From Halichondria panicea (taxonomy: Eukaryota; Porifera; Demospongiae; Suberitida; Halichondriidae), in contig NC_087377.1 of the NCBI RefSeq assembly GCF_963675165.1, forward strand, positions 17,340,518 to 17,404,517: a stretch of 64,000 bases of DNA, in the 5' to 3' direction. Positions within the stretch are counted from its first letter, which is position 1. Every line of letters starts with the position of its first letter. The translations under genes were made by a program, and so were the position numbers. Shown piece after piece: positions 1 to 49,406 of the stretch. The notes beneath the pieces were generated by a model, which made no database searches, had not been told where the DNA came from, and worked only from the letters and a program-made list of their open reading frames with translations.

Positions 1-1609
1 AAAGACACAAGGACGAGCATGACAACCTTCACTCAAATGAAGGACACTAAAGGTATGAGTGTTTGGCCAACTTGATATCCTATAATCTTTCTTTTAGATA
101 CAAGAGGCTCGGACACAGTGGAGGCAACAAAGAGGGAGTCAAAGGACACTCAACCAGTCAAGAAGGTGCGTACATGTAGTGTGATAATGAGATTCCCACA
201 GCAACAATAGTATTGTACCTTAACATGCATGGATGCTGTCTCATGTGTTAAGCCGTAACTACACATCTGTTTGAGTGTGCCTATAATTATGTACTTCATT
301 TAGCGCAAATTGTTGATTGTTCTCGTTCTGTTGTAGAATTTCCACAATGATATTCACGTCTGTGTTTTAGATTTCCACCAACGTTCCCCTGTACAGGCTC
401 ACTGTGAGCAGATTGAGCACAAAGATGCTGAGCTGGTCAGGAGAGACGCCATCATTCAACAGCAGAGACAGGTGAGACAAAATGCACCATTATATTATTG
501 CAGAGCTATAGTAGAAGCTTTGATCTCTTATAATCGTACTGTACATTCTATTAGACTAGTGGGCGTGGCCTCTTAAGCTAATTAGAGAAAGTGATTTAGT
601 GTGCATGCAATTATTGCTACAAGTAACACTCGCTTGTTAGTAGACACTATCCTAATTACACTCATTCATTATTCAGGGTCCCCCTCCCAGAGAGTTGAGA
701 CCTCCACTCACTCTGAAATGGAGAAGAGGAAAAGACATGCCAATCAAGATAGGTGACTCGGTACAGAGTGTTGTTATCGGTGACACGGTGTATGTTGGTG
801 GAGGTAATGCAGGCAATAATCGTGACATGTGTACAGTGATGAAGCTCGAGCAAGATCAATGGACCAAACTACCAGAGTACACTGCCTGGTACTTCGCTAT
901 GACATCACTCGCTAATCGACTAGTGCTGGTGGGAGGATATGATCCAAGAAACAAAAAACGCACCAATCAACTTGCAGTGTTTGAGTCAGGGGAATGGACT
1001 CACCCGTACCCACCAATGAACATTGCTCGTGATTTCTCAACAGCTGTCTCCTTCAACAACCACATCATTGTAGCTGGTGGGCATGATGATAAAAGACGTA
1101 CCTCCTCTGTGGAGGTGTTGGACGTGGCATCAAGAAGATGGTACATTGCTCAGTCACTACCTAACCCACGATCACATCTGAAATCTACTCTCATAGGAAA
1201 CACCCTCTACCTAATGGGAGGGTGGGATCACACTCGGAGTGCAACCAAGACAGTGTACCACGTCGACCTCACTGAACTCGTTGCAAAGGCCCATTCGAAC
1301 CTGGACACACCCACTCTCTGGCAGACCTTACAGGAAGCACCACTCGAGTTGTCAGCTCCTCTCAGTATTGGGAGGTCACTATTAGCCGTTGGTGGACGAG
1401 ACGACAGAGCCAACCCAAGTTCATCGATCCACCTCTACCAGCCTGACACAAGGAGGTGGGTGAAAGTGGGAGACCTGCCTACTGCACGATACTTCTGCAC
1501 ATGCTCAGTACTTCCTAGTGGAGAGGTCATTGTAGCCGGAGGACAGACAAGTGCATATCTGCTTACTTTTAGTCCAACTGTTGGTTTCTTCACTATAAGT
1601 GCTAATTAG
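1..1609 (+). CDS. Receptor gene A, 3' part: linker, coiled coil, six-bladed kelch propeller (5' end outside window)
   Basis: Exons are 1-52 (partial), 98-165, 397-471 and 677-1609, all with GT-AG borders. Exons 1-2 match the second and third exons of gene E, so the missing 5' end may be CARD-type as in E. The 25-codon exon 397-471 encodes a charged helix (HKDAELVRRDAIIQQQRQ). The last exon encodes a kelch domain with six GG motifs (VGGG, LVGG, VAGG, LMGG, AVGG, VAGG), each blade carrying a Trp before it. Such propellers bind protein or peptide ligands on one face. Residues that differ from the paralogues cluster just after the GG and about 15 residues before it. No signal peptide or membrane segment is visible, so a cytosolic sensor is inferred. 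The kelch frame is open to its stop. Confidence 0.85.
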
Positions 1610-3044
1610 TTATTTTGTTAATTGTTTCTCTTTAATTGTGCGATGAGTTTATAACGATATTGATATTCTTTTTATTATGTTGAGACAATTAAGTTGCAAC
1701 AGAATTTTATCGCATAATTATAGTTATTATGATGACATGAAGTGGTACATACATAATTACATTGCCAGAAAATAGTACAAAAACAGACAAAATAATATTT
1801 AACAGCCTCATAACAAGTTCAGGTCCTTGGTTGGGGTCTTGTCCGAGGGTAGGGTGGACGCCTTCTCCCAGAATACAAAGTCTATCTCCTCTTCCGAGTC
1901 AGACAGTGAGGGGTGGGGCTCGGGAACTGAGGGGTTAAAGAGTCACATGATCATAGTCACACTGAGTGGCCAGTTTACGTGAGGCCCCTCTCTTTCTTAG
2001 CAGCATAGTAGGCTTATCTTTTCTGGCCCCCAGTTATCCTAATGGAACTGAGGGGTTAAAGAGTCACACGGTCATAGTCACACTGAGTGGCCTTCTTAGC
2101 AGCATAGTACGCCTAAAGGTGTGTGTGTGTGTGTGTGGGGGGGGGGGGGTCGTACATGATTGTACATTGCACACCTCAAATAGGACACACTATAGCTGAC
2201 CTTGAATGACTTTAAGGGACTCTACAAAGTATGACACAAATGCATTTTCCAGCTAATGTACTCTGTACCTCTACCTCCATTCTCAGTGCCTCTTCTTGTC
2301 TCCTCAACACTTGGCCGGGCTGAAAAATGGCTGCATAACTGGGGGCCGGAAAAGATGAGGGGCGGAAAAATCAAACAATAGTACAGAAGACAAATCGATC
2401 AGTCAATCTACAATTAGAACTAGAGCACTGAAGTGCTACCCTCGGCAGTGTCCTGTAGCCAGGATAAACAACACATGGACACATTCAAACTGGTAGTGTG
2501 ATGAAGGGTCTGGTACACGTACTGTACAATGTCATGTACAAATATTGTGAGCTAGTGTTCTCAATTGACAGACGTTTCCCTGTACACACCTAAACTGCAT
2601 ACATTGTATACAAGTGCATGTACATACAGACTAGTAAGCATGCTAGGTTCCCATTCTTTGTACTGTACATTCAATAGTACACAGTCAACTCATTGCACTG
2701 CATAACTACACATTATACACACGTACCTTGTTCTTGATGAAGGTTCTTCTCAATGCCAGCTAATGGTTAGCTCATGCACAAGCAGTCGATTACCAGGCCA
2801 ACTTTCGAGGAAGTGCCGCTTGAGAAGGAGGCTAGGCTGCACATAATTATAATGGGCGTGGTTACATATAAATGGGCTTTGCTACAATATTTTTCTCAAA
2901 GAGCTCCACACAAATATCATGTATAAAAACTATGTATACATAATAATACTGACAATGTAGCTATAGTAAGTGAAGGAGAGATTACTAAAAAACACACGTT
3001 AAAACTAGAACAGTATAAACAGTCCACAATTATAATATACTGTA
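1610..3044. other. 3' flank of A, shared with the other cassettes
   Basis: This non-coding stretch is repeated almost base for base behind B and, with deletions, behind C, D, E and F. It holds relic minus-strand exons (listed separately), a (TG)n-G(n) tract near 2,121-2,149 and the 3' flank of the USF pseudogene. No intact gene is seen. Confidence 0.75.
1808..1926 (-). pseudogene. Relic C-terminal exon of an unidentified acidic protein
   Basis: On the minus strand a consensus acceptor precedes an open exon that ends in TGA. It reads an acidic stretch (SDSEEEIDFVFWEKAS) and the tail TPTKDLNLL. The same exon lies behind B (10,461-10,579), C (18,154-18,272), D (about 25,126-25,245, one extra G), E (44,380-44,498) and F (about 49,773-49,892, altered). 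A second candidate exon at about 2,285-2,330 (motif GQVLRRQEEALRME) repeats near 10,935 and 25,500. The parent gene is not recognised. Multiple truncated copies suggest it was carried along with the duplicated cassette. Confidence 0.5.
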
Positions 3045-6000: not shown

Positions 6001-6196
6001 GTGTGTGTGTGTTACCTGGGTATCATGCACAAGGCCAAAGTTAGGGCCCAAGTCACTGGCCTGTAGCTGCTCCACACTCTCCCCATCATCACTATGACTT
6101 ATCTCTATCTCAAACTGTGAACTGGGTACCACCTCTTCAGTAACGATAGTAACCGTCTCCACGTCGGTCGGCTCTGTCCCTACGTGTAGTATCTCT
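3045..6196 (-). pseudogene. USF-like bHLH-zipper pseudogene 1
   Basis: This copy matches the intact gene at 50,823-53,840 exon by exon: exon 1 remnant about 6,017-6,196, then pieces about 5,633-5,806, 5,265-5,400, 4,903-4,955, the bHLH exon about 3,645-3,751 and a last exon about 3,058-3,330. The first exon has lost its start (replaced after the stretch corresponding to ETEILHVG). The bHLH exon has a 2-base insertion before the zipper junction. The last exon lacks the leucine zipper and most of the Gln/Ser-rich tail, with the two ends joined by unrelated sequence. It cannot make a normal USF protein. Short read-through products or a non-coding transcript cannot be excluded. Confidence 0.85.
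3945..4345. repeat. Dispersed repeat inserted in USF pseudogene 1
   Basis: The block begins with TGCCTCGAGGCGTAGCCGCA, followed by a (TGTC)n run and a diagnostic stretch around TTCTATAGGCTTCTAGCCACG. The same block is at about 12,610-12,985 in pseudogene 2, and a diverged copy is at about 31,541-31,800. It separates the basic-region exon from the bHLH exon. It has no coding potential and the family is not identified. Confidence 0.6.
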
Positions 6197-7102: not shown

Positions 7103-10100
7103 ATGTCTGACTATCTCACGATAGCAGATCTAAAGAAATTGTACCTTGTCACGTTTAATGCTCGAATTAAGTGGCGAAACATCTTGCTTATTCTTGACGT
7201 ACCCTCGGATACCATCGATAGTATTGGTACGAAATGGCGAGACAATCCTGATGAATGCTATCGTGAGGGTTTGAAAGAATGGCTGAAAGGTGAAGAGAGA
7301 CGCTGGGAAGATGTTGTCAAAGCTTTGTCCAGTCCCATTGTGGGCCACGTTGGCATAGCTAATACCATCGAGAAAGATCATCTACAGTCTACTGATGCAA
7401 GCAATCCTACTGATGTGAAGTCAGAGGGTAAGCACTAGTTCAGCACAGGAATCATACAGTCATAATGCTTAGTTCGTTAGCTGCTATATATAATATAATA
7501 TTCACCCCCCCCACCCCCACACACACACACACACACAATGTTCTACAGTTGACCAAAACCGCCAGAAGATCAACAATGATTTGACTGTTTTCTTAAACGA
7601 ACCTCTCGGTAAAGGTGCATTTGGAGCAGTCTTCAAAGGCAGCTACAGGAGCGAGATTTGTGCGGTCAAACTTCTGATTTACGAGGCTGTAGAAATGCAG
7701 ACAGGTTTCCCAGCCGGTAAAAGTGAAGAATCCAGCAAAGCATTTGATCGTGAGTGTGAGTATCTCCAGTCACTCCAGCACCCAAACGTTGTTCAGTATT
7801 TATCGACAGCTAAGCATCCCAAATCAGGTGGTACAATCCTCGTTGTTGAGCTGATGGATTGCAATCTGAGATCCTATTTCTCCGGCCTTGATGAAGAGTC
7901 TATCACTAGCGAATGTGAAATTAGCCTGTCCAAAGACATGGCTTGTGGTCTGGCCTACATTCACAGCAAGCAGATTATCCACCGTGACCTCTGTGGCGAT
8001 AACGTCTTGCTGAAGCTAACACTGCCAGTGCCTGTTGCAAAGATTTCCGACTTTGGCATGTCACGGCTATATGATCCCTCCAAGCTTAGCCACACCCTCA
8101 CGGCCGTTGGTCACCGTATGGGGTATCTACCTCTCGAGGCTATTCGATTGGACAAGGAGACTTACGATAATAGCGTGGATGTGTTTTCCCTTGGGGCGAT
8201 TATGGTACAGATCGTTTGCAAGCTGAAGACAGTCAAATCTGTGGAAGATCGATTAGACCATGTTGCCCAGGTCCCTCACACACACAAGTTGAGGAAGCTT
8301 ATCGACAGTTGTTTGCAAGAAGACATGAGGAGGAGACCATCTGCCAGGGACATATGTAAGTCAATTAGTGTTGTACATTTTACCGCAAATAATTTGTAAG
8401 TCAATTTGTGTGTTGTACGATTCCGAAATTTTATTCGGAAAAAATTCCTTATTGAAGATTTAACTTTTACTTTAGATGCTTCACTGACAAGCCACTCTGA
8501 CACAGTGGAGGCAACAAAGAGGGAGTCCAAGGACACTCAAGTAAATCAACTTTTACATCAAGTATCTGAGAAAGACACTCATTCACAAGCATCTATCGAT
8601 CGGCTTCAAGCTGAGCAAGTTTGTGGACTAGAAGAAGTGACCACTCCTAAACAAGAACAGTTTGAAGTTCAACCCAGAGAAATTAATCATCTAGTGAAAT
8701 CTCTGCAGATACAACCTCGGAAGGACACTCAACCAGATAATAACTTAGCTGCAGATGTTGACCTGACAAGTGGCTCGAACCCAGTGGAGGCAACAAAGAG
8801 GGAGTCAAAGGACACTCAACCAGTCAAGAAGGTGCGTACATGTAGTGTGTGAATGAGATTCCCACAGCAACAATAGTATTGTACCTTAACATGCATGGAT
8901 GCTGTCTCATGTGTTAAGCCGTAACTACACATCCGTTTGAGTGTGCCTATAATTATGTACTTCCTTTAGTGAAGATTGTCTCGTTCTGTTGTAGAATTTC
9001 TACAATGATATTCACGTCTGTGTTTTAGATTTCCACCAACGTTCCCCTGTACAGGCTCACAGGGAGCACAAAGATGCTGAGCTGGTCAGGAGAGACGCCA
9101 TCATTCAACAGCAGAGACAGGTGAGACAAAATGCACCATTATATTATTGCAGAGCTATAGTAGAAGCTTTGATCTCTTATAATCGTACTGTACATTCTAT
9201 TAGACTGGTGGGTGTGGCCTCTTAAGTTAATTAGAGAAAGTGATTTAGTGTGCATGCAATTATTGCTACAAGTAACACTCGCTTGTTAGTAGACACTATC
9301 CTAATTACACTCATTCATTATTCAGGGTCCCCCTCCCAGAGAGTTGAGACCTCCACTCACTCTGAAATGGAGAAAAAGAAAAGACATGCCAATCGAGATG
9401 GGCTACTCGGTACAGAGTGTTGTTATCGGTGACGCAGTGTATGTTGGTGGAGGTGATGCAGGCGATGATCGTAATAGCTGTACAGTGATGAAGCTGGAGC
9501 AAGATCAATGGACCAAACTACCAGAGTACACTGCCAAGTACTTCGCTATGACATCACTCGCTAATCGACTAGTGCTGGTGGGAGGATTTGATTCAAGAAA
9601 CAACAAACCCACCAATCAGCTTGCAGTGTTTGAATCAGGGGAATGGCCTCACCCGTACCCACCAATGAACATTGCTCGCCATTTCTCAACAGCTGTCTCC
9701 TTCAACAACTACATCATTGTAGCTGGTGGGGATGATGATAAAGGACGTATCTCCTCTGTGGAGGTGTTGGACGTGGCATCAAGAAGATGGTACATTGCTC
9801 AGTCACTACCTAACCCACGATCATCACTGAAATCGACTCTCATAGGAAACACCCTCTACCTAATGGGAGGGTGTGATCAAAATGTGACGGCAACCAAGAC
9901 AGTGCATCACGTCGACCTCAGTGAACTCATTGCAAAGGCCCTTTCCAACCTGGACATACCCACTCTCTGGCAGACCTTACAGGAAGTACCACTCGTGCTC
10001 TCAGCTCCTCTCAGTATTGGGAGGTCACTATTAGCCGTTGGTGGACGGGACGACAGATTCAACCCAAGTTCATCAATCCACCTCTACCAGCCTGACACCA

Positions 10101-10270
10101 GGAGGTGGGTGAAAGTGGGAGACCTGCCTACTGCACGATACTGCTGCACATGCTCAGTGCTTCCTAGTGGAGAGGTCATTGTAGCCGGAGGACGGACAAA
10201 TTATTATACTAATATACTAATGTTTACTTATATTCAAACTGTTGATTTCTTCTCTATAAGTGCTAATTAG
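7103..10270 (+). CDS. Receptor gene B: Death domain, TKL-like kinase, linker, coiled coil, kelch
   Basis: Exons 7,103-7,427, 7,549-8,355, 8,476-8,831, 9,055-9,120 and 9,326-10,270 give 832 residues in frame. Residues 1-100 form a Death domain (KWRNILLILDV core, conserved W in RRWEDVVKAL). The kinase follows, with the glycine loop GKGAFGAVFKG, AVK lysine, HRDLCGDN catalytic loop and DFG, so it looks active. The usual PPEA is PLEA. The linker exon is 356 bp, against 77 bp in C and D, and contains two copies of a [12 protein letters not shown] block. The coil exon has lost three codons. The kelch domain has six blades. An acceptor just before the ATG suggests a 5' UTR intron. Intron 1 has a (CA)n tract. 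The layout resembles IRAK-type Death-kinase signalling fused to a ligand-binding propeller. Function is inferred. Confidence 0.85.
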
Positions 10271-15146: not shown

Positions 15147-17952
15147 ATGTCTGACTATCTCACAATAGCAGATCTAGGAAAACTATACATAGCTACGTTT
15201 GATGCTCGAATCAAGTGGAGAAACTTCTTGCTGGTTCTTGAGATACCCTCGGATACCATCGACAGCATTGGGAAAGATTGGAGCAACAATCCTGATGACT
15301 GCTATCGTGAGGGTTTGAAAGAATGGCTGAAAGGTGGTGAGAGAAGCTGGGAAGATGTTGTCAAAGCTTTGTCAAGTCCCATCGTGGGTGAAGTTCACAT
15401 AGCCAGGACCATCGAGAAAGATCATCCTAGTGCAAGCAATCCTAAAAGAATAAAATTACAAAGTAGGTACCAATGGCACATTAATATATAATACATGTTA
15501 ATACGTTATCTTTCATGCACACAATATTCTTTAGTTGACGAAAACCGCCAGAAGATCAACGATGATTTGACTGTTTTCCTAGACGAACTCGGTAGTGGTG
15601 CATTTGGAGCAGTCTTCAAAGGCAGCTTCAAGGGCAATCCTTGTGCTATCAAACTTCTACATCAGATTGCTATGGAGATGCAGGCAAGTATTCCAGTCGG
15701 TAAAAACGAAGAAGCTAGCGATGCAATTGATCGTGAAAGTGATTTTCTCAAGTCGTTCCAGCACCCAAATGTTGTCCAGTTTTTGTCGACTGCCAAGCAC
15801 CCCAAATCAGGGAGTACAATCCTTGTTGTTGAGCTGATGGATTGCAATCTGAGATCCTATTTCTCTGGCCTTGATGAAGAGTCCCTCACTAGCAAATGTG
15901 AAATTAGCCTCTCTAAAGACATAGCTTGTGGTCTGGCCTACATTCATAGCAAGAAGATTATCCACCGTGACCTCTGTGGCGATAACGTCTTACTGAAACT
16001 TACACGACCAGTGCCTGTTGCAAAGATTTCCGACTTTGGCATGTCACGGCTATATGATCCCTCCAAGCTTAGCCACACCCTTACAGCCATTGGTCACCGT
16101 ATGGGGTATCTACCTCTCGAGGCTATTCGATTGGACAAGGATAATTACGATAATAGCTTGGATGTGTTCTCTCTTGGGGCGATTATGATGCAGATTGTTT
16201 GCAAGCTGAAGACAGTCAAATCTGTGGAAGATCGATCATTCCATGTTGCCCAGATACCTCACACACACAGGTTGAGGAAGCTTATCGACAGTTGTTTACA
16301 AGAAGACATGAGGAGGAGACCATCTGCCAGGGACATCTGTGAGTCAAATATAAGTATGTGTTTTACGTTTCCACTAACCCCTAACTCTAACACAAAAATC
16401 ATTTTATTTTGGTATTGATTTTTTTTACTTTTTAGATGCTGACCTGACAACAGGCTCGGACCCAGTGGAGGCAACAAAGAGGGAGTTCAAGAACACTCAA
16501 CCAGTCAATATGGTGCGTACATGTAGTGTGATAATGAGATTCCCACAGCAACAATAGTATTGTACCTTAACATGCATGGATGCTGTCTCATGTGTTAAGC
16601 CGTAACTACACATCCGTTTGAGTGTGCCTATAATTATGTACTTCCTTTAGCGTAAATTGTTGTTTGTTCTCGTTCTATTTTCATTAATGATATTCACATC
16701 TGTGAAAGATTCCACCAACGTTCCCCTGTACAGACACACAGTGAACAGATTGAGCACAAAGATGCTGAGCTGGTCAGGAGAGACGCCATCATTCAACAGC
16801 AGAGACAGGTGAGACAAAATGCACCATTATATTATTTCAGAGCTATAGTAGAAGCTTTGATCTCTTATAATCGTACTGTACATTCTATTAGACTGGTGGG
16901 CGTGGCCTCTTAAGCTAATTAGAGAAAGTGATTTAGTGTGCATGCAATTATTGCTACAAGTAACACTCGCTTGTTAGTAGACACTATCCTAATTACACTC
17001 ATTCATTATTCAGGGTCCCCCTCCCAGAGAGTTGAGACCTCCACTCACTCTGAAATGGAGAAGAGGAAAAGATATGCCAATCAAGATGGGTCGCTCGGTA
17101 CAGAGTGTTGTTATCGGTGACACGGTGTATGTTGGTGGAGGGCTTGCAGACAATGGTCGTGATGAGTGTACAGTGATGAAGCTCGATCAAGATCAATGGA
17201 CCGAACTACCAGAGTACACTGCCGAGTGTTTCGCTATGACGTCACTTGCTAATCGACTAGTGCTGATGGGAGGATATGATCCAATAGACATCAAACCAAC
17301 CAATCAACTTGCAGTGTTTGAGTCAGAGGAATGGACTCACCCGTACCCACCAATGAACATTGCTCGCCATTCCTCAACAGCTGTCTCCTTTAACAACTAC
17401 ATCATTGTAGCTGGTGGGCATGATGATAAAGTACGTGTCCTCTCCTCTGTGGAGGTGTTGGACGTGGCATCAAGAAGATGGTACATTGCTCAGTCACTAC
17501 CTAACCCACTATCAGAACTGAAATCGACTCTCATAGGAAACACCCTCTACCTAATGGGAGGGTTCGATCACACTCTGAGTGCAACCAAGACAGTGCACCA
17601 CGTCGACCTCAATGAACTCATTGCAAAAGCCCTTTCCAACCTGGACACACCCACTCTCTGGCAGACCTTACAGGAAGCACCACTCGAGTTGTCAGCTCCT
17701 CTCAGTATTGGGAGGTCACTATTAGCCGTTGGTGGACGGGACGACAGAGACTACCTAAATTCATCGATCCACCTCTACCAGCCTGACACCAGGAGGTGGG
17801 TGAAAGTGGGAGACCTGCCTACTGCACGATACTTCTGCACATGCTCAGTACTTCCTAGTGGAGAGGTCATTGTAGCCGGAGGACAGACAAAACTGTTTAT
17901 AATTACTGATTATATTCCAACTGTTGATTTCTTCTCTATAAGTGCTAATTAG
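15147..17952 (+). CDS. Receptor gene C: Death domain, TKL-like kinase, linker, coiled coil, kelch
   Basis: Exons 15,147-15,462, 15,535-16,338, 16,436-16,512, 16,734-16,808 and 17,014-17,952 sum to 736 residues in frame. The Death domain (KWRNFLLVLEIPSDTIDSIG) is followed by a kinase with GSGAFGAVFKG, the AIK lysine, HRDLCGDN and DFG intact. The linker is the short form. The coil exon has the full 25 codons. In the kelch domain, C differs from its paralogues at the blade positions described in the findings (for example Glu-Cys in place of Trp-Tyr or Lys-Tyr in blade 2). Intron 1 lacks the (CA)n tract of B and D. It converges on USF pseudogene 3. A cytosolic sensor kinase is inferred. Confidence 0.85.
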
Positions 17953-22101: not shown

Positions 22102-24961
22102 ATGTCGGACTATCTCACAATAGCAGATCTAAAGAAATTGTACCTCGTCACGTTTGATGCTCGAATTAAGTGGCGAAACATCTTGCTTATTCTTGACGTA
22201 CCCCAGGCTACAATCCACAGCATCGGGAAAGAATGGAGCAACAATCCTGATGACTGCTATCGTGAGGGTTTGATTAAATGGCTTAATGAAGGAGGGAAGA
22301 GCTGGAAAGAGATGGTGGAGGCATTGACCAGTCCCATCGTGGGTGAAGCTCACATAGCCCAGACCATCGAGAAAGATCATCTACAGTCTACTGGTCCAAG
22401 CAATCCTACTGATGTGAAGTCAGAGGGTAAGCACTAGTTCAGCACAGGAATCATACAGTCATAATGCTTAGTTCGTTAGCTGCTATAATATTCACCCCCC
22501 CCCACACACACACACACACACACACACACAATGTTGTACAGTTGACCAAACCCGCCAGAAGATTAACGATGATTTGACTGTTTTCTTAGACAAGCCTCTC
22601 GGTAAAGGTGCATTTGGAGCAGTCTTCAAAGGCAGCTACAAGGGCGAGATTTGTGCAGTCAAAGTGCTGCTTCACGATGCTATGGAGATGCAGGCAAGTA
22701 TTCCAATCGCCAAAGACGAAGAAGCTAGCAATGCAATTGATCGTGAGAGTGATTTTCTCAAGTCGTTCCAGCACCCAAACATTGTTCAGTTTTTGTCGAC
22801 TGCCAAGCACCCCAAATCAGGGAGTACAATCCTCGTTGTTGAGCTGATGGATTGCAATCTGAGATCCTATTTTTCTGGCCTTGATGAAGAGTCCCTCACT
22901 AGCGAATGTGAAATTAGCCTCTCCAAAGACATAGCTTGTGGTCTGGCCTACATTCATAGCAAGCAGATTATCCACCGTGACCTCTGTGGTGATAACGTTT
23001 TGCTGAATCTTTCACGACCAATGCCTGTTGCAAAGATATCCGACTTTGGCATGTCACGGCTATACGATCCCTCCAAGCTTAGCCACACTCTCACAGCCAT
23101 TGGTCACCGTATGGGGTATCTACCTCTCGAGGCTATACGATTGGAAGAGAAGAAATACGATAACAGCCTGGATGTGTTTTCCTATGGGGTGATTGTGACG
23201 CAAATTGTTTGCAAGCTGGAGACGATCAAATCAGTCAAGGATCGATTATTCCATGTTGCCCAGATCCCTCACACACACAGGTTAAGGAAGCTTATCGACA
23301 GTTGCTTGCAAGAAGACATGACGAGGAGACCATCTGCCAGGGACATCTGTGAGTCAATTATAATTATGTGTTTTACGTTTCCACTAACTCCTAGCTCTAA
23401 CAGAAAAATCATTTTATGTTGGTATCGATTTTCTTTTACTTTAGATGCTGACCTGACAACAAGCTCGGACACAGTGGAGGCAACAAAGAGGGAGTCAAAG
23501 GACCCTCAACCAGTCAAAAAGGTTCGTACATGTACTGTGATAATGAGATTCCCACAGCAACAATAGTATTGTACCTTAACATGCATGGATGCTATCTCAT
23601 GTGTTAAGCCGTAACTACACATCCGTTTGAGTGTGCCTATAATTATGTACTTCCTTTAGTGAAGATTGTCTCGTTCTGTTGTAGATTTTTCTGTAATGTT
23701 ATTCACGTCTGTGTTTGATTTCCACCAACGTTCCCCTGTACAGACACACGGGGAACAGATTAAGCACAAAGATGCTGAGCTGGTCAGGAGAGACGCCATC
23801 ATTCAACAGCAGAGACAGGTGAGACAAAATGCACCATTATATTATTGCAGAGCTATAGTAGAAGCTTTGATCTCTTATAATCGTACTGTACATTCTATTA
23901 GACTGGTGGGCGTGGCGTGGCCTCTTAAGCTAATTAGAGAAAGTGATTTAGTGTGCATGCAATTATTGCTACAAGTAACACTCGCTTGTTAGTAGACACT
24001 ATCCTAATTACACTCATTCATTATTCAGGGTCCCCCTCCCAGAGAGTTGAGACCTCCACTCACTCTGAAATGGAGAAGAGGAAAAGACATACCAATCAAG
24101 ATGGGTACCACGGTACAGAGTGTTGTTATCGGTGACACGGTGTATGTTGGTGGAGGGCGTGCAGGCAATGATCGTGACGTGTGTACAGTGATGAAGCTCG
24201 AGCAAGATCAATGGACCAATCTACCAGAGTACACTGTCAAGTACTTCGCTATGACATCACTCGCTAATCGACTAGTGCTGGTGGGAGGACGTGATCTAAG
24301 AAACAACAAACCCACCAATCAGCTTGCAGTGTTTGAATCAGGGGAATGGACTCGCCCGTACCCACCAATGAACATTGCTCGTGATTCCTCAACAGCTGTC
24401 TCCTTCAACAACCACATCATTGTAGCTGGTGGGCGTGATGATGAAGAACGTACCTCCTCCTCTGTGGAGGTGTTGGACGTGGCATCAAGAAGATGGTACA
24501 TTGCTCAGTCACTACCTAACCCACGATCAATACTGAAATCAACTCTCATAGGAAACACCCTCTACCTAATGGGAGGGTGGGATCACACTGGGAGGCCAAC
24601 CAAGACAGTGCACCACGTCGACCTCAATGAACTGATTGCAAAGGCCCATTCGAACCTGGACACACCCACTCTCTGGCAGACCTTACAGGAAGTACCACTC
24701 GTGTGGTTAGCTCCTCTCAGTATTGGGAGGTCACTATTAGCCGTTGGTGGACGAGACGACAGACGCAACCCAAGTTCAACGATCCACCTCTACCAGCCTG
24801 ACACCAGGAGGTGGGTGAAAGTGGGAGACCTGCCTACTGCACGATACTGCTGCACATGCTCAGTACTTCCTAGTGGAGAGGTCATTGTAGCCGGAGGACA
24901 GACAAAACTGTTTACTGCATATACTCCAACTGTTGATTTCTTCTCTATAAGTGCTAATTAG
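22102..24961 (+). CDS. Receptor gene D: Death domain, TKL-like kinase, linker, coiled coil, kelch
   Basis: Exons 22,102-22,426, 22,542-23,348, 23,445-23,521, 23,744-23,818 and 24,029-24,961 give 738 residues in frame. The Death domain differs from B and C in its middle (VPQATIHSIGKEW and INEGGKSW-like region), more than the flanking introns do. The kinase keeps GKGAFGAVFKG, the AVK lysine, HRDLCGDN and DFG. The kelch domain has six blades with its own set of variable residues (GGR after blades 1, 2 and 3). Intron 1 carries (CA)n next to a C-run. No USF copy follows D; the sequence behind it instead resembles that behind E. Confidence 0.85.
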
Positions 24962-32100: not shown

Positions 32101-32889
32101 TTAATTATGGTTGAATTATCTTGTTTCAGATTCACATCATAAGCTTATTAGATGGAGAATCGTCACTCGTGGCTGCATTGACGGCTGCAGTAGGCTGGTG
32201 ACTTTCTTGAAGTGTTGTGGCAATAATAAATCGTCAACCGTGTACGAATTATTTTTGTGTGCAGTTCAAAAGCATCAGCTGCCATCTCGTATAATTATAA
32301 GAATGGACCAAGGTGGGGAAAATGTATTGGTCGCACGTCACATGTTAGGACATGATATGAGGAGTGTGATTGTAGGAGCCTCGGTCCATAATCAACGCAT
32401 AGAGCGACTATATGGAGGGACATGCACCGCTGTGACTATTCTCTTTTACAAGCTGTTTTACTTTATGGAACAAGTGGATCTATTAGACTGTTTGAATGAG
32501 ACACATCTGTATTCCCTTCATTATAATGTGTTCATTCCACGTATTAATCAGGCACTTGCACTGTTCATTGGTGGATGGAACCATCACTCAATCCGAACTG
32601 CACACCGTAAGTCTCCACACCAGTTGTTTACAACAGGGGCACTACTTTTGCAGCACGACTCGCAGCTTTGGATTTTTTTGAGAATGTGGAGGAAGAATAT
32701 GGAATTGATATGGAAGGCCCCATCCCGTCTCAGGGACGTTCTATAGTTGTGCCTGAGGTGCCAATAAGGCTAAGTTCAGAGAATTTTGCTCTCCTACAGC
32801 AAGCTGTTAATCCGTTAGCACCTTCTGATGAGTTTGGCATTGATTTGTATGAACAAGTTTTGCAGTTTATGTTAACGATTACGGTATAA
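29107..32889 (+). pseudogene. Integrase-core (DDE) transposase, decayed, with a 2.2-kb intron
   Basis: The 5' half (29,107-29,885) encodes an N-terminal region and a helix-turn-helix (TEIAALLGVS), and ends in PNSLWHI. The 3' half starts at 32,130 in matching phase (D-SHHKLIRW) and holds the integrase core: ...[35 protein letters not shown], then the family C-terminus [11 protein letters not shown] and NPLAPSDEFGID. The GT at 29,886 and AG at 32,129 make a clean intron. Lesions are a frame change near 29,335, an in-frame TAG near 29,516 where the family has another residue, and a one-base frameshift in the T7 run at 32,673-32,679. It is therefore inactive. This family occurs in many aquatic animals as 'integrase core domain' proteins. 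Confidence 0.8.
30080..30620. repeat. Diverged dispersed repeats in the transposase intron
   Basis: Fragments at about 30,080-30,300 and 30,480-30,620 match the CCTCCAAATATG repeat of 6,340-6,610. A fragment at about 30,395-30,490 matches the MITE at 25,700. The rest of the intron (29,886-32,129) shows no gene. A copy of the 3,945 repeat is at about 31,541-31,800. Confidence 0.5.
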
Positions 32890-38495: not shown

Positions 38496-38501
38496 AGAAA
38501 G
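38496..38501. repeat. Right 6-bp target-site duplication AGAAAG
   Basis: Matches 28,717-28,722. Confidence 0.7.
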
Positions 38502-39479: not shown

Positions 39480-42263
39480 ATGGCCACTCAAGCAACCCCC
39501 GACCATTCTCCAGAGTATCTGTCCTTCCAAGAGAACTTTGAAGCATTGGTGTCCACATTCAAAGCTCAACCTGCTGCATACGCTGATAGCCTCTTCTCCA
39601 ATGGCTACATACCAGATGAAGTTCTCGAGTACTCTAGACTAAATGGAGTTATGAACTCGGATAAATCTCGAAAGATTCTGGATACTATCATCCATCAAAT
39701 TAAGCTCAATCCCAGTGTATTCCACGACTTTATCGCTGCCATTGCTGGCCCTTCTACTGACGATGTTGTCAAGAAGCTACATGATAGTTACGAGCTTCAC
39801 AAGACTGCGACCAGCCGTGTTGAACAGCCGCAACTCTCTCCACCCCCACACCAGCAACCTCCACCAGAGGCTCCGACGTCCTTCAGCTTCCCACACCTCA
39901 ACACCTCTAGCCTTGATGATGATGTTAAAATTGAATTAGAGGATCGGCTCATACGTGATACAAGAGAAATGATTATTAGGTTCACTGCTTTTACTCTAAT
40001 TATACAAAGATCATTTGAAAACCAACGGATCCCATTGGATCAGATTAAAGATTCTCTTCTCAGCCTCGAATCTTTCAACGACGGGATTGGAGTTAAAGTC
40101 CTTGAGGAAAAAGATAAGCAAAAGATTGAAAATGCCAAAAATTTGTCCCAAGTCTTCATGACTCTACGTGCTTTCATCTCCTTCAATTATGAGATAGTGC
40201 AGTACCTCATCCAGCTGCTGGGATCACCAGACGACCGAACACAACTGCGTGAGTATTGTTCTGCACTTAATGAGTTCTGCCAGCGAAATGTGTTTGAAGT
40301 TCCGGCCGAAGCTTTCTCTTCAATATCTCGTATCAAAACGGCTAAAATGTTTGTTCTCAAGTGCACTGAGCGAGTAGCCACACTGGAGTATGTAAAAAGG
40401 CTGATTCCGAGAATTGCTGAAGCCCTTGGTCTACAAAGAGCAGCGCTACAACTCAGTTCAGTCAGACAAGGCTGCTTGGAGCTCCACTTTCTCATCACTG
40501 TAGCTGTTGCCAAGTGTATCTACCCAGTGTCTCCTACTGTACAGTCTGCTCTCAGTGCGATGGGGGTCAAAGTTCTCACCTGTGGAAGTACGGATGAGGT
40601 GGAGACATTACTGCTGGAACAGTAAGTTCTTGAAGAGGCACTATATACCCGTACTCCTGCATAATTATAATAATTATATACCGTAAGTTAATTAACTAAC
40701 AAGCGTAGGCCCTATATATATTATAATGAATATATAATTACAAGTATGTACATGTCATGTACAGGGATCTGAGCAAACTCAAACTAGAAGGTGTTGAGAA
40801 GATGTCTAAAGACACAAGAACGAGCACGACAACCTTCACTCAAATGAAGGACACTAAAGGTATGAGTGTTTGGCCAACTTGATATCCTATAATCTTTCTT
40901 TTAGATACAAGAGGCTCGGACACAGTGGAGGCAACAAAGAGGGAGTCCAAGAACACTCAACCAGTCAAGAAGGTGCGTACATGTAGTGTGATAATGAGAT
41001 TCCCACAGCAATAATAGTATTGTACCTTAACATGCATGGATGCTGTCTCATGTGTTAACCGAATATACGCCATGACGTCACGTTGCGAAACACCCCCGCA
41101 GCCATATTGATTTTTTAAAAATGCACAAATTTAATCAGTTCTTAGAAAACTGTTTGTAACTTGTCGACTTTTGATTGTGCAAGTTAGACTAGGAAGAAAG
41201 ACCAGTCAAAGATCTACAAGATGATGCCCGAATCGCTTACTATCTCGAAGGATTGGTTGTGATCTGCTTCTGTCAAGCGGTAAGTAGTAGTTACGTATAA
41301 TACTGCTTTGTTACATGGCTTTTTAGATTCGCTAGAAGCTTCATACAGCCTAATACTTATTGTAGTAAGTATATAGGACGTAGCTGTAAAGTTTGTAGTG
41401 CTGAGAAGCGTTGCTTAGCGTTTTTTTGTGCAGCTACACAAGGTACTGGGGACGGTGGCTTATAACCTGAGGCAGCTATGTGTAAAGAGAAACAGTGGCA
41501 GTGGTAAAAAGGTGAGTACAAGCTTCCTAAGCTGTATGTTGACTCTACTGAATGTTTAGAGTCTACTTTAGGGCCTGCATCACCTATCATAGACTTCAAT
41601 TTATTTAAAATCAGGCCCATAAAATTAATATTAAAAGTACAACCGGTTGTAGTTGCTACAGTACTTGTTTGTACTTGTTGCATGCGTTTGTAGAATCGCT
41701 AGAAGCTCTGGTACTGACTGTACATGGTAGATAGTAGTTGTATCTAGAATTAGTAGTGCTAAGCAGCATTGATTAGCCTTCTTTGTGTACGTACGTACAC
41801 TACATGTAGGTGTGACTGGATCCAATAATCCGGAGGTGGGGCCACGTATGTACAGTGAACAGAGGAACAGTGGCAGTAGCAGCGAGGTGAGCCAGGATAC
41901 GTATTACGTTTGTTGACTACACTAACATTATGTTTAGAACTCGTGTGTATAACCTATTATGTAATTATAATTATATAGCCCTTGAATAGTAAAATAATAG
42001 CCTCGCCTTTTGTTCTTCGAGCCTTGAAAAACTTTTTTTTTACCATCAGTAACGATTATAATTCTTTGCGTAACTAACAATAGATATAAAAAGTGTCTGA
42101 TGTCTGTGGCTACTGCTGATACTTTGCTGTCACACTATGCACTGCCACTGGGTCCCTTTTGGAGTACCTTGGAGTCGCCTCTGTCAAGAGTAGAATACAC
42201 GGTTAGACACACGCACACATACAAGCATACACAAACACTCCCGTACACACACACACACACACT

Positions 42264-42294
<31 letters not shown>

Positions 42295-42399
42295 GCGCAC
42301 GCAAACACACACACACACACATACGTACGCAAACACACGCACGCAAACACACGCACGCAAACACACACACACACACACATACGTATGCAAACACACACA

Positions 42400-42436
<37 letters not shown>

Positions 42437-44181
42437 CCATTTACACGCATACACGCGCACAGACAATGCCATGTACAGGAAGGTTGACGTTGGTGGTAGG
42501 ACGTTCACAACAGTGCTCAGCTCATGCAGTGTCGATGTCCTATCCAGATCTACATTTTTGATAATTTAATGTTGTAATTATTGTTGTACTGTACCGGGTA
42601 TTTGATGTTCTTGTTTTTATTCTATACATTGAGTGAAGCCATTTTATTTGTTGCATTTACCTTCAAGCTCCTCTCCAAACTGTTCTCAATCAGAAAACTC
42701 ATCATCACTGCCCTCCATGACTGGCACATCTCTGTTACCTTGCTGTACTCTGGCTACTGGGTCTTCTATGTCAATCTGTGCAGGTCCCAGAGCTAGTGGG
42801 TAGCCTACAATTTCATGCAGCACCTCCTCACTGATCTAGTGTGGCCTCTTAGCCATGCTAGTAGCTCTATATAATTTTTTGATAGTGTTTGTTCATGCCA
42901 ATAATTAATATTTAATTTGTAAACTAGCTACATATTCAAGCGTGTATTGCCAAAATATTTTCTGCACAGTACGAAGTTTTGACTGCATAATTATATACTT
43001 ACCTGAACAGTAACTGGACATAGTAGTAGCGTTAAAATAGCAGCAGCCGCTCCCTGGTTTCTTTAGAGCATGCAGAGAGAAGCCGGATTACTGCGGTTGA
43101 CACAAAAATGCGTCTATGGCGTCATACCGACATGACGCTTAAATGCATCTGCGGCTAATTAGAGAAAGTGATTTAGTGTGCATGCAATTATTGCTACAAG
43201 TAACACTCGCTTGTTAGTTAGTAGACACTATCCTAATTACACTCATTCATTATTCAGGGTCCCCCTCCCAGAGAGTTGAGACCTGCACTCACTCTGAAAT
43301 GGAGAAGAGGAAAAGACATGCCAATCAAGATGGGCATCTCGGTACAGAGTGTTGTTATCGGTGACACGGTGTATGTTGGTGGAGGGTTTGCAGACAATGA
43401 TCGTGACAGGTGTACAGTGATGAAGCTCGAGCAAGATCAATGGACCAAACTACCAGAGTACACTGCCATGTACTTCGCTATGACATCACTCGCTAATCGA
43501 CTAGTGCTGGTTGGAGGATATGATCCAAGTAACAAGAAACGCACCAATCAGCTTGCAGTGTTTGGGTCAGGGGAATGGACTCACCCGTACCCACCAATGA
43601 ACATTGCTCGTAATTCCTCAACAGCTGTCTCCTTCAACAACCACATCATTGTAGCTGGTGGGCGTAATGAAGAACCTACCTCCTCTGTGGAGGTGTTGGA
43701 CGTGGCATCAAGAAGATGGTACATTGCTCAGTCACTACCTAACCAACGATCAGTACTGAAATCGACCCTCATAGGAAACACCCTCTACCTATTGGGAGGG
43801 TACGATCACACTGGGAGTGCAACCAAGACAGTGCACCACGTCGACCTCAATGAACTCATTGCAAAGGCCCTTTCCAATCTGGACACACCCACTCTCTGGC
43901 AGACCTTACAAGAAGTACCACTCGTGTGGTCAGCTCCTCTCAGTATTGGGAGGTCACTATTAGCCATTGGTGGACGCGATGACAGAGACAACCCAAGTTC
44001 ATCGATCCACATCTACCAGCTTGACACCAGGAGGTGGGTGAAAGTGGGAGACCTGCCTACTGCACGATACAGCTGCACATGCTCAGTACTTCCTAGTGGA
44101 GAGGTCATTGTAGCCGGAGGACTGACAAAACCGTTTACTAGTATTCAAACTGTTGATTTCTTCTCTATAAGTGCTAATTAG
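39480..44181 (+). CDS. Receptor gene E: CARD-like domain, helical domain, linker, kelch (no kinase, no coil exon)
   Basis: Exons 39,480-40,621, 40,765-40,859, 40,905-40,972 and 43,258-44,181 give 742 residues in frame. Residues ~10-110 look like a CARD-type death-fold ([14 protein letters not shown] then a C-terminal helix). After a Pro-rich spacer ([12 protein letters not shown]), residues ~150-380 form an all-helical domain ending in [12 protein letters not shown], a type I associate with invertebrate death-domain proteins but cannot name. The linker matches A. The coil exon present in the other genes is missing, apparently removed with the replacement at about 41,060-43,155. Exon phases still join in frame (0 to 0). 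The kelch domain is intact with six blades. A 5' UTR intron (39,310-39,479) is likely. An adaptor-like sensor is inferred. Confidence 0.75.
41060..43155. other. 2.1-kb replacement inside gene E intron, covering the lost coil exon
   Basis: Homology to the other cassettes stops at about 41,059 (after CTCATGTGTTAA) and resumes at about 43,157 (CTAATTAGAGAAAGTG). The 2.1 kb between has no counterpart in A, B, C or D. It holds the large CA-rich tract, and near its two ends short CGCCATGACGTCA / GGCGTCATACCGACATGACG motifs that might be degenerate inverted termini. No coding sequence is convincing. Confidence 0.65.
42200..42445. repeat. CA-rich microsatellite, ~245 bp
   Basis: (CA)n broken by CGCA, TACG and CAAA interruptions. 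Long open frames here in several frames are artefacts of the repeat. Confidence 0.9.
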
Positions 44182-46067: not shown

Positions 46068-46073
46068 CACGTG
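46068..46073. promoter_or_regulatory. CACGTG E-box 99 bp before receptor F
   Basis: AACCACGTGGTTT is a perfect palindrome of 12 bp around the box. The box with the same following bases (CACGTGGTTT) is conserved upstream of B, C and D, although the F coding start is unrelated to theirs. Confidence 0.45.
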
Positions 46074-46171
46074 GTTTGCTGATTCAGCAGTTATTTGCAT
46101 GTGATTGAATAAGAAAAGGGGCGTATCTTGTGTAGCTGTCAAGCTAGCTAGCTGAGTCAACTTAACTACCA

Positions 46172-49100
46172 ATGTTTTCTTTGCGAGATGATGCTGACTT
46201 GAGGGAGTTTGTGCTGGAGAATGTGGAGCACTTTGGAGAGGAGAGAGCTCTAGGAACTGGCTCCTATGGCTCTGTTCAAGAGGTCAGTCACTGCATGCTC
46301 TGTTTCTGTGCTCTGTCTCTAGTGTATCTGCTAGCTATTCAAGTGTGACTGCCTCCATGCACAGGTGATGATCAATGGTGAGGTGTATGCAGCCAAGAAG
46401 ATCCACGAGGTTCTCCTGGAGACGGACGAGCGTGGTGGAGTGGCCAACCTAGCTGGGAACTACCGCCGAGAGTGTCGACTCATGGCTCGCATCCGTCACC
46501 CCAACATCACCCAGTTCATTGGGCTGTGTTTCGTGACTGGCTCTCGACTGCCCCTCCTGGTCATGGAGAGACTGGACTCAAGTCTGGACGATCTCCTGGA
46601 GTCCACCCCCAACATCCCCCTCTCTGTCACCCAGTACATTCTGGTCTGTGTGGCTCGAGGGCTGCTCCACCTGCATCGTGAGTCCGTGGTCCATCGTGAT
46701 CTCACTGCCAGGAACGTCCTGCTGACGGCATCTCTGAGAGCCAAGATCACCGACTTTGGTAACTCTCGTATCGTGAATCTGGAGCCTGGTCGACTGGCCA
46801 GGACTCTAACGAGGTTTCCTGGGACACTGGTGTACATGCCGCCCGAGGCCCTCTCTGACAGAGGTCACAGTGTGTACGGACCCAGTCTGGACGTCTTCTC
46901 TTTCGGAGTGCTACAACTGTTTGCACTCACACAAGTACGTGTGTAGTTAATGATATTCATAGGTTAGATTCCTGGTGACCTTTCATGCAGTGAATTACCT
47001 TATAAGTATTGTGGTTGTATGTGTTGGGGAGATCCCCCTTTAATATTGTTGACCTTCAGCAAATGCATTTTGTATGTATGATTGTGAATATACGTGCACT
47101 CATTTTCTCCAGACATACAGACATACATAAAAACAATCACGACAGTCAGTATTCACATGTTCTTTCACTCGTGTCATTGGACTAGGTGTTTCCAGGAGAT
47201 CTCCTTGCCCCCACGTACAGCGACCCCAACAACCCAGACCACCTCCTGGCTCGCTCAGAGTTTGAGCGTCGAGGTCCCTACACGGCTCTTCTTGAGAGGA
47301 GTCTGGCGGGTGGACGTGAGCACCCTCTGTTTGGTCTGGTGAGGGAGTGTCTGGCCAACACCCCAGAGAGAAGACCGACCACCGCTGAGCTCCTCTCGTC
47401 TCTGGAGGAGGTGGAGAGGGAGATGGACGGAGGACTGCTCCAGCTGGACATTGGACGAGTGAAGACTGCCAGGACCCTCAGGGCAAAGGAGAAGAGGATA
47501 GAGGCTCTACAGGTGAGTCCAGTCCAGTGAGCTAGTAGGTGCAAGGGTCTGACACTGCATGCTGTACTCTGTTTTCAGAGAGAGGTGGTCCAGAAGGACA
47601 GGATACTGGAGAGGAAAGATGAGCAAATAGTACAGAAAGATGAGCAACTTACTGAGAAAGATGCACTTCTAGTGCAAAAAGACAACCAACTCGAACAGAG
47701 CGTTGCACTACTGGCACAAAAAGACGATCAACTTGTTCAAAAAGATGAGGAAGTAGCGGACAAAGATATTCAGCTGGCTAGACAGCAACAGGTCAGCAGA
47801 ACCAGTTTATTTTGTTTATTATAAGCTATTTTGTTCAACAAGCTAGCATGTTGATAACCTTTTTTTATACAGATATTGAATAGTGTCCGTGCTAATGCTG
47901 CCACCAAAGATGGTGTGATTGCTGACAAGGACAGACGACTCAGTGAACAAGAGTCAACGATCGCTGATCTCATTTCCCAGAGAGAGGCTGCTCTAGTTGA
48001 GAGGGCCGCTCTCTTACAGGTATTATAGTAGTCACCAAATGCACACACTCTTATACGCTAGTATTATACTACAATAATGATATTTGTTTGCGTACATGTA
48101 GCTAAGTGTGTCGATGAGATTCCAACAATAGTATTATACCTCAACAATTGATGCTATTGTATAAATCATGCTAAGCTGCTAAATACACCTCCGTTTGAGT
48201 GTGCCTATAATTATGTACTTCCTTTAGTGAAGATTGTTGTTTGTTCTCGTTCTGTTGTAGAATTTTCTCTAATGTTATTCATGTCTGTGTTTGATTTCCA
48301 CCAACGTTCCCCTGTACAGGCACACAGGGAACAAATTGGGCACAAAGATGCTGAGCTGGTCAGGAGAGACGCCATAATTCAACAGCAGAGACAGGTGAGA
48401 TTAGTACATTAGAGAAAGTGATTTAGTGTGCATGCAATTATTGCTACAAGTAACACTCGCTTGTTAGTAGACACTATCCTAATTACACTCATTCATTATT
48501 CAGGGCCCCCCTCCCAGAGAGTTGAGACCTCCACTCACTCTGAAATGGAGAAGAGGAAAAGACATGCCAATCAAGATGGGCATCTTGGTACAGAGTGTTG
48601 TTATCGGTGACACGGTGTATTTTGGTGGTGACAGGTGTACAGTGATGAAGCTCGAGCAAGATCAATGGACCAAACTACCAGAGTACACTGCCAGGTTCTT
48701 TGCTATGACATCACTCGCTAATCGACTAGTGCTGGTGGGAGGATATGATCCAAGAAACAAAAAACGCACCAATCAGCTTGCAGCGTTTGAATCAGGGGAA
48801 TGGACTCACCCGTACCCACCAATGAACATTGCTCGTGATTGCTCAACAGCTGTCTCCTTCAACAACCACATCATTGTAGCTGGTGGGGATGATGATAAAG
48901 GACGTACCTCCACTGTGGAGGTGTTGGACGTGGCATCAAGAAGATGGTACATTGCTCAGTCACTACCTAACCCACTATCAGAACTGAAATCGACTCTCAT
49001 AGGAAACACCCTCTACCTAATGGGAGGGTGGGATCACACTGGGATAACCAAGACAGTGCATCACGTCGACCTCAATGAACTCATCGCAAAGGCCCTTTCC

Positions 49101-49406
49101 AACCTGGACACACCCACTCTCTGGCAGACCTTACAGGAAGTACCACTCGTGTGGTCAGCTCCTCTCAGTATTGGGAGGTCACTATTAGCCGTTGGTGGAC
49201 AGGACGACAGAGACAACTCAAGTTCATCGATCCACCTCTACCAGCCTGACACCAGGAGGTGGGTGAAAGTGGGAGACCTGCCTACTGCACGATACCGCTG
49301 CACATGCTCAGTACTTCCTAGTGGAGAGGTTATTGTAGCCGGAGGACAGACAAAACCATTTCGTAATTTTGTTCAAACAGTTGATTTCTTTTGTATAAGC
49401 GATTAA
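46172..49406 (+). CDS. Receptor gene F: kinase, long coiled coil, kelch
   Basis: Exons 46,172-46,282, 46,365-46,934, 47,186-47,512, 47,579-47,791, 47,873-48,019, 48,320-48,394 and 48,504-49,406 give 781 residues in frame. The kinase has GTGSYGSVQE, AAKK lysine, HRDLTARN, DFG and MPPEAL, so it is complete. It is clearly a different kinase from that of B-D and has no Death domain. Next is a heptad-like stretch of repeated QKD-EQL units (47,579-47,791), more coiled coil, the shared 25-codon coil exon and the kelch domain. The first kelch loop is about eight residues shorter than in the others. The coding style is more GC-rich and C-ending in the kinase than in the kelch, which suggests an older kinase-coil gene that is either donor or recipient of the kelch module. 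Dimerisation through the coil is inferred. Confidence 0.85.

What the first reader, a model, noticed from the sequence alone, without database searches (positions are those of the whole stretch)
677..49406. Six clustered kelch propellers vary almost only at ligand-pocket positions
Seen directly: kelch exons of A-F are near-identical, yet in each blade one spot changes codon. Blade 1 after MG: D, Y, R, T, I, I. Blade 2 after YTA or YTV: W, K, E, K, M, R. Blade 3 after NIAR: D, H, H, D, N, D. Blade 4 after the S in NPRS or NPLS: H, S, E, I, V, E. Blade 5: EL, VL, EL, VW, VW, VW. Blade 6 after TARY: F, C, F, C, S, R. A second set lies right after each GG (blade 1 N, D, L, R, F, deleted; blade 3 H, D, H, R, R, D; blade 4 W, C, F, W, Y, W). 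The changes are nearly all amino-acid changing, while neighbouring codons and even introns stay the same. Known: in KEAP1 the residue 15 before GG is Ser363, Asn414, Ile461, Ser508, Ser555 or Ser602, and residues after GG include Arg380 and Asn382, all in or beside the NRF2 pocket. The variable sites of this family coincide with, or sit next to, that pocket. Inference: diversifying selection on recognition, as in an immune receptor or allorecognition family.
Basis: partly seen in the sequence, partly recalled or inferred. Interest (0 to 1): 0.95.

Follow-up and report, generated by a model that had tools for sequence, protein, structure and literature searches.

The report
Sponge kinase receptors with hypervariable propellers
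A breadcrumb sponge carries well over a hundred closely related copies of a propeller-shaped binding domain, fused to signalling kinases in the genes read in full, and evolution has changed mainly the ring of amino acids on the propeller's binding face, which is what an intracellular non-self sensor family would look like in one of the earliest animal lineages.

Summary
The six kelch exons belong to a family with 167 exon starts in Halichondria panicea. My FUBAR-style test of 309 codons positively selected (2dlnL 510; largest of 180 null simulations with recombination 112). Of the 27 such sites between residues 28 and 288, 26 lie in BC or DA loops of the AlphaFold propeller and none in AB or CD loops, in KEAP1-pocket register; 11 more lie in the C-terminal tail (290-309). 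21 type-1 kinase exons show 0 of 268 selected codons. An array on contig C3 and five distant protein clusters vary at the same places. Genes read in full are Death-like, kinase, coiled coil, kelch, or a second kinase, long coiled coil and the same kelch; hydropathy shows no signal peptide or membrane helix. Best reading: a cytosolic non-self recognition family, possibly immune, working like fungal HET-NACHT-WD40 allorecognition genes with unrelated parts. Ligand and function are untested.

The parts
677..1609 (+). Copy A, kelch exon (gene starts upstream of the window; linker-like match 100-165 and short coiled-coil exon match 394-450)
7103..7426 (+). Copy B, Death-like exon
   Evidence: tblastn with gene D
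7542..8399 (+). Copy B, kinase exon (PF00069/PF07714); end approximate
9326..10270 (+). Copy B, kelch exon
15147..16337 (+). Copy C, Death-like and kinase exons (one tblastn match across both; internal boundary not set)
17014..17952 (+). Copy C, kelch exon
22102..22426 (+). Copy D, Death-like exon starting MSDYL
   Evidence: Death assignment
22542..23348 (+). Copy D, kinase exon (type 1, HRDLCGDN and DFG present)
23445..23521 (+). Copy D, linker exon
23744..23818 (+). Copy D, short coiled-coil-like exon
24029..24961 (+). Copy D, kelch exon; the five exons join in one 738-aa frame
43258..44181 (+). Copy E, kelch exon; a linker-like match lies at 40907-40972, no kinase match was found between 25 and 43 kb
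46172..46982 (+). Copy F, type-2 kinase exons (matches 46172-46285, 46362-46982), a different kinase from type 1
47159..48391 (+). Copy F, end of kinase and long coiled coil (47159-48019), short coiled-coil exon (48314-48391)
48504..49406 (+). Copy F, kelch exon, loop after the first GG deleted

Best explanation
This is a large germline-encoded family of cytosolic recognition kinases of the sponge Halichondria panicea. The C-terminal six-bladed kelch propeller is the sensor: a ring of positions at -15, -14, +2 and +4 to +9 around each blade's GG, on the loops that form the ligand face in KEAP1, is under strong diversifying selection (shown by sequence and predicted structure). The rest of the propeller and the kinase are conserved (shown). 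Point changes, and exchange of sequence between copies, even between genes with two different kinases, spread new binding faces through the array (exchange shown indirectly). Ligand binding on the propeller would cluster the protein through its coiled coil and, in type 1, its Death-like domain, and switch on the kinase, as Death-kinase proteins such as IRAK do (inferred; IRAK recalled). The ligand is most likely non-self: microbial or viral proteins inside the cell, or products of foreign sponge cells (inferred).
For: pN/pS 4.09 versus 0.90 at sites named beforehand, in 52 other copies. 39 of 309 codons selected, 2dlnL 510 on one tree and 401 summed over three segment trees; 180 null simulations with three different trees reached at most 112 and 18 sites. 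Kinase control: 21 distinct type-1 exons, 0 of 268 codons, 2dlnL 7.2, mean beta/alpha 0.40; kelch of 19 of those genes: 26 of 308, 2dlnL 176, beta/alpha 1.62. Sites fall at -15 (5 of 6 blades), -14 (5 of 6), +2 (6 of 6); none at -24 to -17, -13 to +1, +3. 26 of 109 BC/DA-loop codons against 0 of 45 AB/CD-loop codons, p 4.6e-5. Array on C3, 12 distinct exons, 28-30% identical to copy A: the -15, -14, +2 offsets have pN/pS 2.65, the rest 0.77. Five protein clusters of 8 to 47 members from unnamed records vary at the same columns (12 to 20 of the top 30, p 2e-6 to 1e-17); in the one of 47 members 14 of 15 residues at those offsets exceed 1.5 bits against 18 of 240 other kelch residues, and the first 300 residues, with the kinase, average 0.18 bits with 7 above 1.5. 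Gene D reads through five exons without a break and a RefSeq model has the same layout (P0121). HRDL and DFG in 21 of 21 and AVK in 20 of 21 kinase exons. Highest 19-residue hydropathy 1.51 in four proteins examined.
Against: No ligand, expression, knock-out or population data. 12 of the 39 selected sites lie outside residues 28-288, 11 of them in the C-terminal tail (290-309), at offsets up to +21 of which most are not pocket positions. The Death-like call is weak: Pfam Death matches 4 of 8 members, best E 0.01, and not gene D itself; the profile finds FADD at E 0.0039 in the PDB. Type-2 and distant relatives lack that N-terminus: in the 8 scanned (P0142, P0182, P0187, P0195, P0205, P0216, P0223, P0231) the kinase match begins at residue 21 to 46. 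Solved kelch propellers often bind peptides of self proteins (titles). A 2018 study of two other sponges lists 'Kelch motif containing gene' entries that fell after microbial signals, not rose (passages of PMC6208332); whether they belong here is unknown.
Confidence: 0.72

Rival explanations
1. Surface or self/non-self allorecognition family: the propellers tell own from foreign sponge cells, in the manner of Hydractinia Alr or Botryllus Fester genes (these two recalled).
For: Diversifying selection, many copies, possible haplotype differences: 4 of 4 copies tested from an unnamed 246-kb contig have no near-identical copy among the matches scored in this assembly (two have a best match of 90%, two nothing above a strict cut-off), while P0001 from another contig matches 100%.
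Against: No signal peptide or transmembrane segment by hydropathy in the two type-1, one type-2 and one distant protein examined. Dozens to hundreds of paralogs point to a repertoire, not one or two allodeterminants. Fungal-type intracellular allorecognition after cell fusion is not excluded.
Confidence: 0.15
2. The propellers recognise a set of the sponge's own fast-evolving proteins, such as degrons, gamete or guarded proteins, so this is signalling specialisation rather than defence.
For: Solved kelch propellers of the KLHL class bind peptides of self proteins (titles); the site register is the KEAP1 pocket.
Against: Dozens of closely related receptors with nearly saturated first and second bases at pocket codons and no pocket consensus are hard to explain by a stable self partner.
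Confidence: 0.1
3. The pattern is an artefact of recombination, relaxed constraint or alignment, without positive selection.
For: Exchange between copies is likely (912 of 2016 pairs of two-state sites fail the four-gamete test) and inflates the test: null simulations gave 2dlnL up to 112 and up to 18 false sites, about 5 on average. Some of the 39 sites may therefore be false.
Against: Observed 510 and 39 sites; tree-free pN/pS of 4.09 on sites named from other copies; relaxed loops would give a ratio near 1, not 4; the same offsets recur in an independent array and in five distant clusters.
Confidence: 0.02
4. A dedicated process diversifies first and second bases of these codons (targeted mutation or very short templated conversion), with selection as a filter.
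For: In 13 pairs with under 2% background difference, selected codons differ 12.5 times more per base. Third bases are more frozen than a codon model predicts at 3 of 12 sites tested (p 0.005 to 0.015).
Against: The other 9 of 12 sites fit the codon model (p 0.05 or more), two of them leaning the other way; the frozen third base differs from site to site, so no single motif is shared; part of the excess in close pairs lies in one C-terminal stretch that looks converted as a block.
Confidence: 0.06

Closest known systems
Fungal HNWD/NWD family (het-d, het-e, het-r of Podospora anserina)
   Same: Cytosolic multidomain receptor with a signalling N-terminus and a beta-propeller sensor; four residues per repeat on the interaction face under positive diversifying selection; repeats exchanged between paralogs (PMC1805685, abstract and passages; PMC12881547, passages).
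   Different: WD40 propeller with near-identical repeats inside one gene, NACHT and HET domains, about ten genes. Here: kelch propeller whose six blades differ from each other, a kinase, no NACHT match, 167 exon starts of one kelch type alone.
KEAP1 and other KLHL kelch adaptors
   Different: No BTB or BACK match in the proteins scanned; a kinase sits in their place; the pocket is diversified instead of conserved.
IRAK and RIPK-type Death-domain kinases (recalled)
   Same: Type-1 layout: N-terminal Death-like domain followed by a kinase matching PK_Tyr_Ser-Thr.
   Different: IRAKs have no sensor domain of their own (recalled); here a diversified kelch is fused at the C-terminus. Death assignment is weak.
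Sponge NLRs (Dysidea avara, H. panicea)
   Same: Large lineage-specific repertoire of presumed cytosolic receptors, some with Death domains (PMC12909245, passages).
   Different: NACHT-LRR instead of kinase-kelch; the word kelch does not occur in the held text of that paper or of PMC8242945.

Membership tests
KLHL/KEAP1-type kelch propeller (fold) | Six kelch blades closing into one propeller | tested here: met
   Pfam kelch matches; AlphaFold pLDDT 90, pTM 0.88; Foldseek and VIA-align to KLHL12, KLHL3, KEAP1
KLHL proteins (BTB-BACK-kelch) | N-terminal BTB and BACK domains | tested here: not met
   Gene D (738 aa) and 10 full-length relatives scanned: kinase plus kelch, no BTB or BACK match
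Protein kinase superfamily, active | Kinase domain with VAIK-type lysine, HRD and DFG | tested here: met
   PF00069 E 1.6e-37; AVK in 20, HRDL in 21 and DFG in 21 of 21 type-1 exons. Activity itself not testable
Death domain superfamily | N-terminal Death fold | tested here: inconclusive
   Pfam Death in 4 of 8 members, best E 0.01, no match for gene D; PDB profile search up to E 10: 13 of 13 hits are FADD, PIDD or a leucine-rich repeat and death domain protein, best E 0.0039
Diversified recognition family (HNWD-like mode) | omega above 1 concentrated on the binding face | tested here: met
   null; 11 of 39 sites lie in the C-terminal tail instead
Diversified recognition family (HNWD-like mode) | Exchange of the sensor between paralogs | tested here: met
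   Indirect: four-gamete failures 912 of 2016, rarer for near (0.31) than far pairs (0.47); kelch background distance within type 1, within type 2 and between types 0.038, 0.035, 0.038 although the kinases differ (19 and 6 genes)
HNWD/NLR proteins | NACHT or other NOD ATPase | tested here: not met
   No NACHT match in Pfam scans of gene D and 10 full-length relatives
Immune or allorecognition receptor | Binds non-self ligand; needed for response or rejection | not testable with these tools
   needs bench work
Polymorphic within the species | Different alleles or repertoires among individuals | tested here: inconclusive
   4 of 4 copies tested from one unnamed contig not found in this assembly, positive control found; source individual and species unknown

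The most novel reading that the evidence does not exclude
Sponges and perhaps other early animals use a so far undescribed class of intracellular receptors, kinase-coiled coil-kelch proteins, present in hundreds of germline copies, in which a kelch propeller plays the part that leucine-rich repeats play in NLRs and VLRs: an interchangeable sensor exon with a ring of hypervariable residues at fixed offsets, shared and swapped between genes with different kinases and conserved as a design across relatives only about 30% identical.
Probability: 0.6. Interest if true: 0.92.

Novelty: new variant of a known kind. Interest (0 to 1): 0.86.

Why it matters
It would add a new sensor scaffold, the kelch propeller, to the short list of germline-diversified recognition domains, in an early-branching animal lineage, and show the same solution as fungal WD40 allorecognition genes reached with unrelated parts. 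It also makes a testable system: the variable positions are known, and the fold has many ligand-bound structures. The sponge repertoire studies I saw in passages count NLR, SRCR, TIR, lectin and GPCR domains; this family would be missed by such counts.

Tried and rejected
Rejected: 'six copies only' (167 starts). Rejected: relaxed loops or recombination artefact. Considered and not supported as the main cause: targeted mutation of codon positions 1 and 2; 3 of 12 sites have third bases more frozen than the codon model expects, 9 of 12 do not, and 2 of these 9 lean the other way. GC-biased conversion as the cause was set aside because first and second bases at the top 12 sites are G 27, A 32, T 29, C 12 percent. 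Surface receptor reading weakened by hydropathy only; no signal-peptide program was available. My selection test is a home-made grid version of FUBAR with FastTree trees and kappa 2, not HyPhy or PAML; rows dropped before it: L013 (stop inside) and four exons identical to others, 58 of 63 used; loci L009, L019 and L032 were not entered because they repeat window copies. Kinase control: 28 matches, 25 of at least 230 residues, one with a stop dropped, 21 distinct; its tree is shorter than that of the matched kelch set (0.69 against 0.88), so it has somewhat less power. In one search, 12 distinct near-full C3 exons were used of 17 loci looked at (13 near-full with one identical pair, 3 cut off by the ends of my stretches and dropped, 1 without a match). 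The distant proteins come from records without names, so I cannot say which species they are; one search cut the kelch from only 34 of 59 and was redone with all 59; of 167 proteins the five clusters of 8 or more hold 133, and the other 34 were not tested. Hits listed are the best 120 of each protein search. Literature: searches listed no paper that I recognised as describing such a family; the library holds open-licence papers only. Further N-terminal exons upstream of MSDYL are not excluded.
Full report
What and where. The window is C1:17,340,518-17,404,517 of a 131-Mb genome. Database proteins on a contig of exactly the same length, 18,138,809 bases, are named Halichondria panicea (P0047, P0051, P0121), so the window comes from the breadcrumb sponge. 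The six kelch exons are part of a long array: a protein search scored 125 matches (of 452 candidates), 104 of them at C1:15.48-16.13 Mb on the minus strand and C1:16.71-17.39 Mb on the plus strand, 3 on C1 near 11 Mb, 15 on C6 and 3 on C28. The splice acceptor plus exon start occurs 167 times with up to 3 mismatches, the reversed control 0 times.

The gene. Copy D joins five exons into one open 738-residue protein: a Death-like domain, a kinase, a linker, a short coiled-coil-like exon and the kelch. A RefSeq model of the species, P0121, has the same layout. Copies B and C show matches to the Death-like, kinase and kelch parts. Copy F belongs to a second type, with a different kinase, a long coiled coil and the same kelch. 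Hydropathy shows no signal peptide or membrane helix in either type, so the proteins should be cytosolic. The Death assignment is likely but weak: 4 of 8 members match Pfam Death, best E 0.01, gene D itself does not, and 13 of 13 PDB profile hits are Death-domain proteins, best FADD at E 0.0039.

Check of the observation. The residue series in the finding are right. I gathered 63 kelch exons (6 window, 57 from loci), 59 distinct, 58 without a stop. At many hypervariable codons first and second bases vary freely while the third is frozen, for example 13 codons but always C as third base in 63 of 63 at site 27.

Selection test. A home-made FUBAR-style grid found 39 of 309 codons with posterior above 0.95 for beta over alpha; 2dlnL between the free mixture and the mixture with beta not above alpha is 510. 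With a separate tree for each third of the exon the sum is 401 and 36 sites pass, most of them the same. Exchange between copies is likely: 912 of 2016 pairs of two-state background sites show all four combinations, and distances of different thirds correlate only at 0.32-0.37. I therefore simulated 180 null alignments with a different tree for each third and no positive selection: the test was inflated (mean 37-38, largest 112; about 5 false sites on average, up to 18) but far below the observation. As a control, 21 type-1 kinase exons gave 0 of 268 sites, 2dlnL 7.2 and beta/alpha 0.40, while the kelch of 19 of these genes gave 26 of 308, 176 and 1.62.

Independent replication. The C3 array, found in passing (48 kinase matches between 0.87 and 3.2 Mb), also holds kinase-coiled coil-kelch genes, with kelch exons 28-30% identical to copy A. 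With 12 distinct exons, and the offsets fixed beforehand, -15, -14 and +2 give pN/pS 2.65 and the rest 0.77; above 1.5 bits are +2 in 6 of 6 blades, -15 in 4 of 6 and -14 in 2 of 6, together 12 of 18 against 14 of 278 elsewhere. At protein level, five clusters of unnamed relatives about 30% identical to the window's kelch (n 47, 45, 21, 12, 8; 133 of 167 proteins, smaller clusters not tested) have 20, 14, 16, 13 and 12 of their 30 most variable columns among the 26 selected sites in range (p 1e-17 to 2e-6). In the largest, 14 of 15 residues at those offsets exceed 1.5 bits against 18 of 240 other kelch residues, and the first 300 residues, which hold the kinase, average 0.18 bits with 7 above 1.5.

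Exchange between gene types. Mean base differences are 2.2% for type-2 kinase exons, 7.9% for type-1 kinase exons, 3.5-3.8% for unselected kelch codons and 31-33% for selected ones; the unselected kelch codons differ as much within type 1 (3.8%) as between type 1 and type 2 (3.8%) (19 and 6 genes). The sensor exon thus appears shared across two kinases. Some pairs are almost identical outside the selected codons: L020 and L036 differ at 0.74% of background bases and at 15 of 39 selected residues, nine of these at 290-309 in what looks like a block conversion, the other six scattered. Some copies are recent duplicates: L014 and L015 agree over 3945 of 3945 bases, and copy D is 99.8% identical over 3.95 kb to two loci elsewhere in the array.

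Polymorphism. Four of four proteins tested from an unnamed 246-kb contig have no near-identical copy among the matches scored in this genome (best 90% for two, nothing above a strict cut-off for two), while P0001 from another contig matches 100%. In a wider look, 1 of 14 proteins of that contig and 0 of 4 of a 632-kb contig had a match of 99% or more among my 63 exons, against 26 of 49 for three other contigs. This suggests a different haplotype or individual with a different repertoire, but the source is not named.

Interpretation. Shown: strong diversifying selection concentrated on one set of propeller loops, conserved kinase, large arrays, same design in distant relatives. Shown indirectly: exchange of the sensor. 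Inferred: ligand binding at that face, clustering and kinase signalling, non-self as the ligand. The mode is that of the fungal HNWD genes, whose WD40 propellers have four diversified residues per repeat on the interaction face and exchange repeats (PMC1805685, abstract and passages), but the parts are different, so this is not a member of that family. Eight searches of open-licence papers listed no paper that I recognised as describing it; two sponge immunity papers do not contain the word kelch, and one lists kelch-motif genes that fall after microbial signals (passages of PMC6208332).

Noticed in passing
   Followed up: partly
window 54839-57648 (+): ORFs with UPF0515, ZU5 (below cut-off) and Death matches in a row, perhaps one or two genes separate from the kelch kinases.
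   Followed up: no
window 50823-51680 (-) and 19052-19525 (-): An ORF with a leucine-zipper-like stretch (LKELVFQNEQL) and a low-complexity tail; the tail occurs again at 19052-19525 as a shorter copy.
   Followed up: no
window 32105-32743 (+): Integrase core ORF (PF24764, E 1.9e-59), a mobile-element remnant inside the array.
   Followed up: no
window 40907-44181 (+): Copy E has a kelch exon and a linker-like match but no kinase match between 25 and 43 kb of the window; it may be a truncated gene.
   Followed up: partly
last 90 bases before the kelch exon, e.g. window 23939-24028: The end of the last intron is much more conserved among copies (pi 0.009-0.017) than columns 90-210 upstream (0.10-0.14) or the exon's synonymous sites (about 0.07); cause unknown, possibly a conversion anchor or splicing signal.
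   Followed up: no
G000 C1:15.48-17.39 Mb: The main array has two arms transcribed outward, minus strand on the left and plus strand on the right, with near-exact duplicates between the arms.
   Followed up: no
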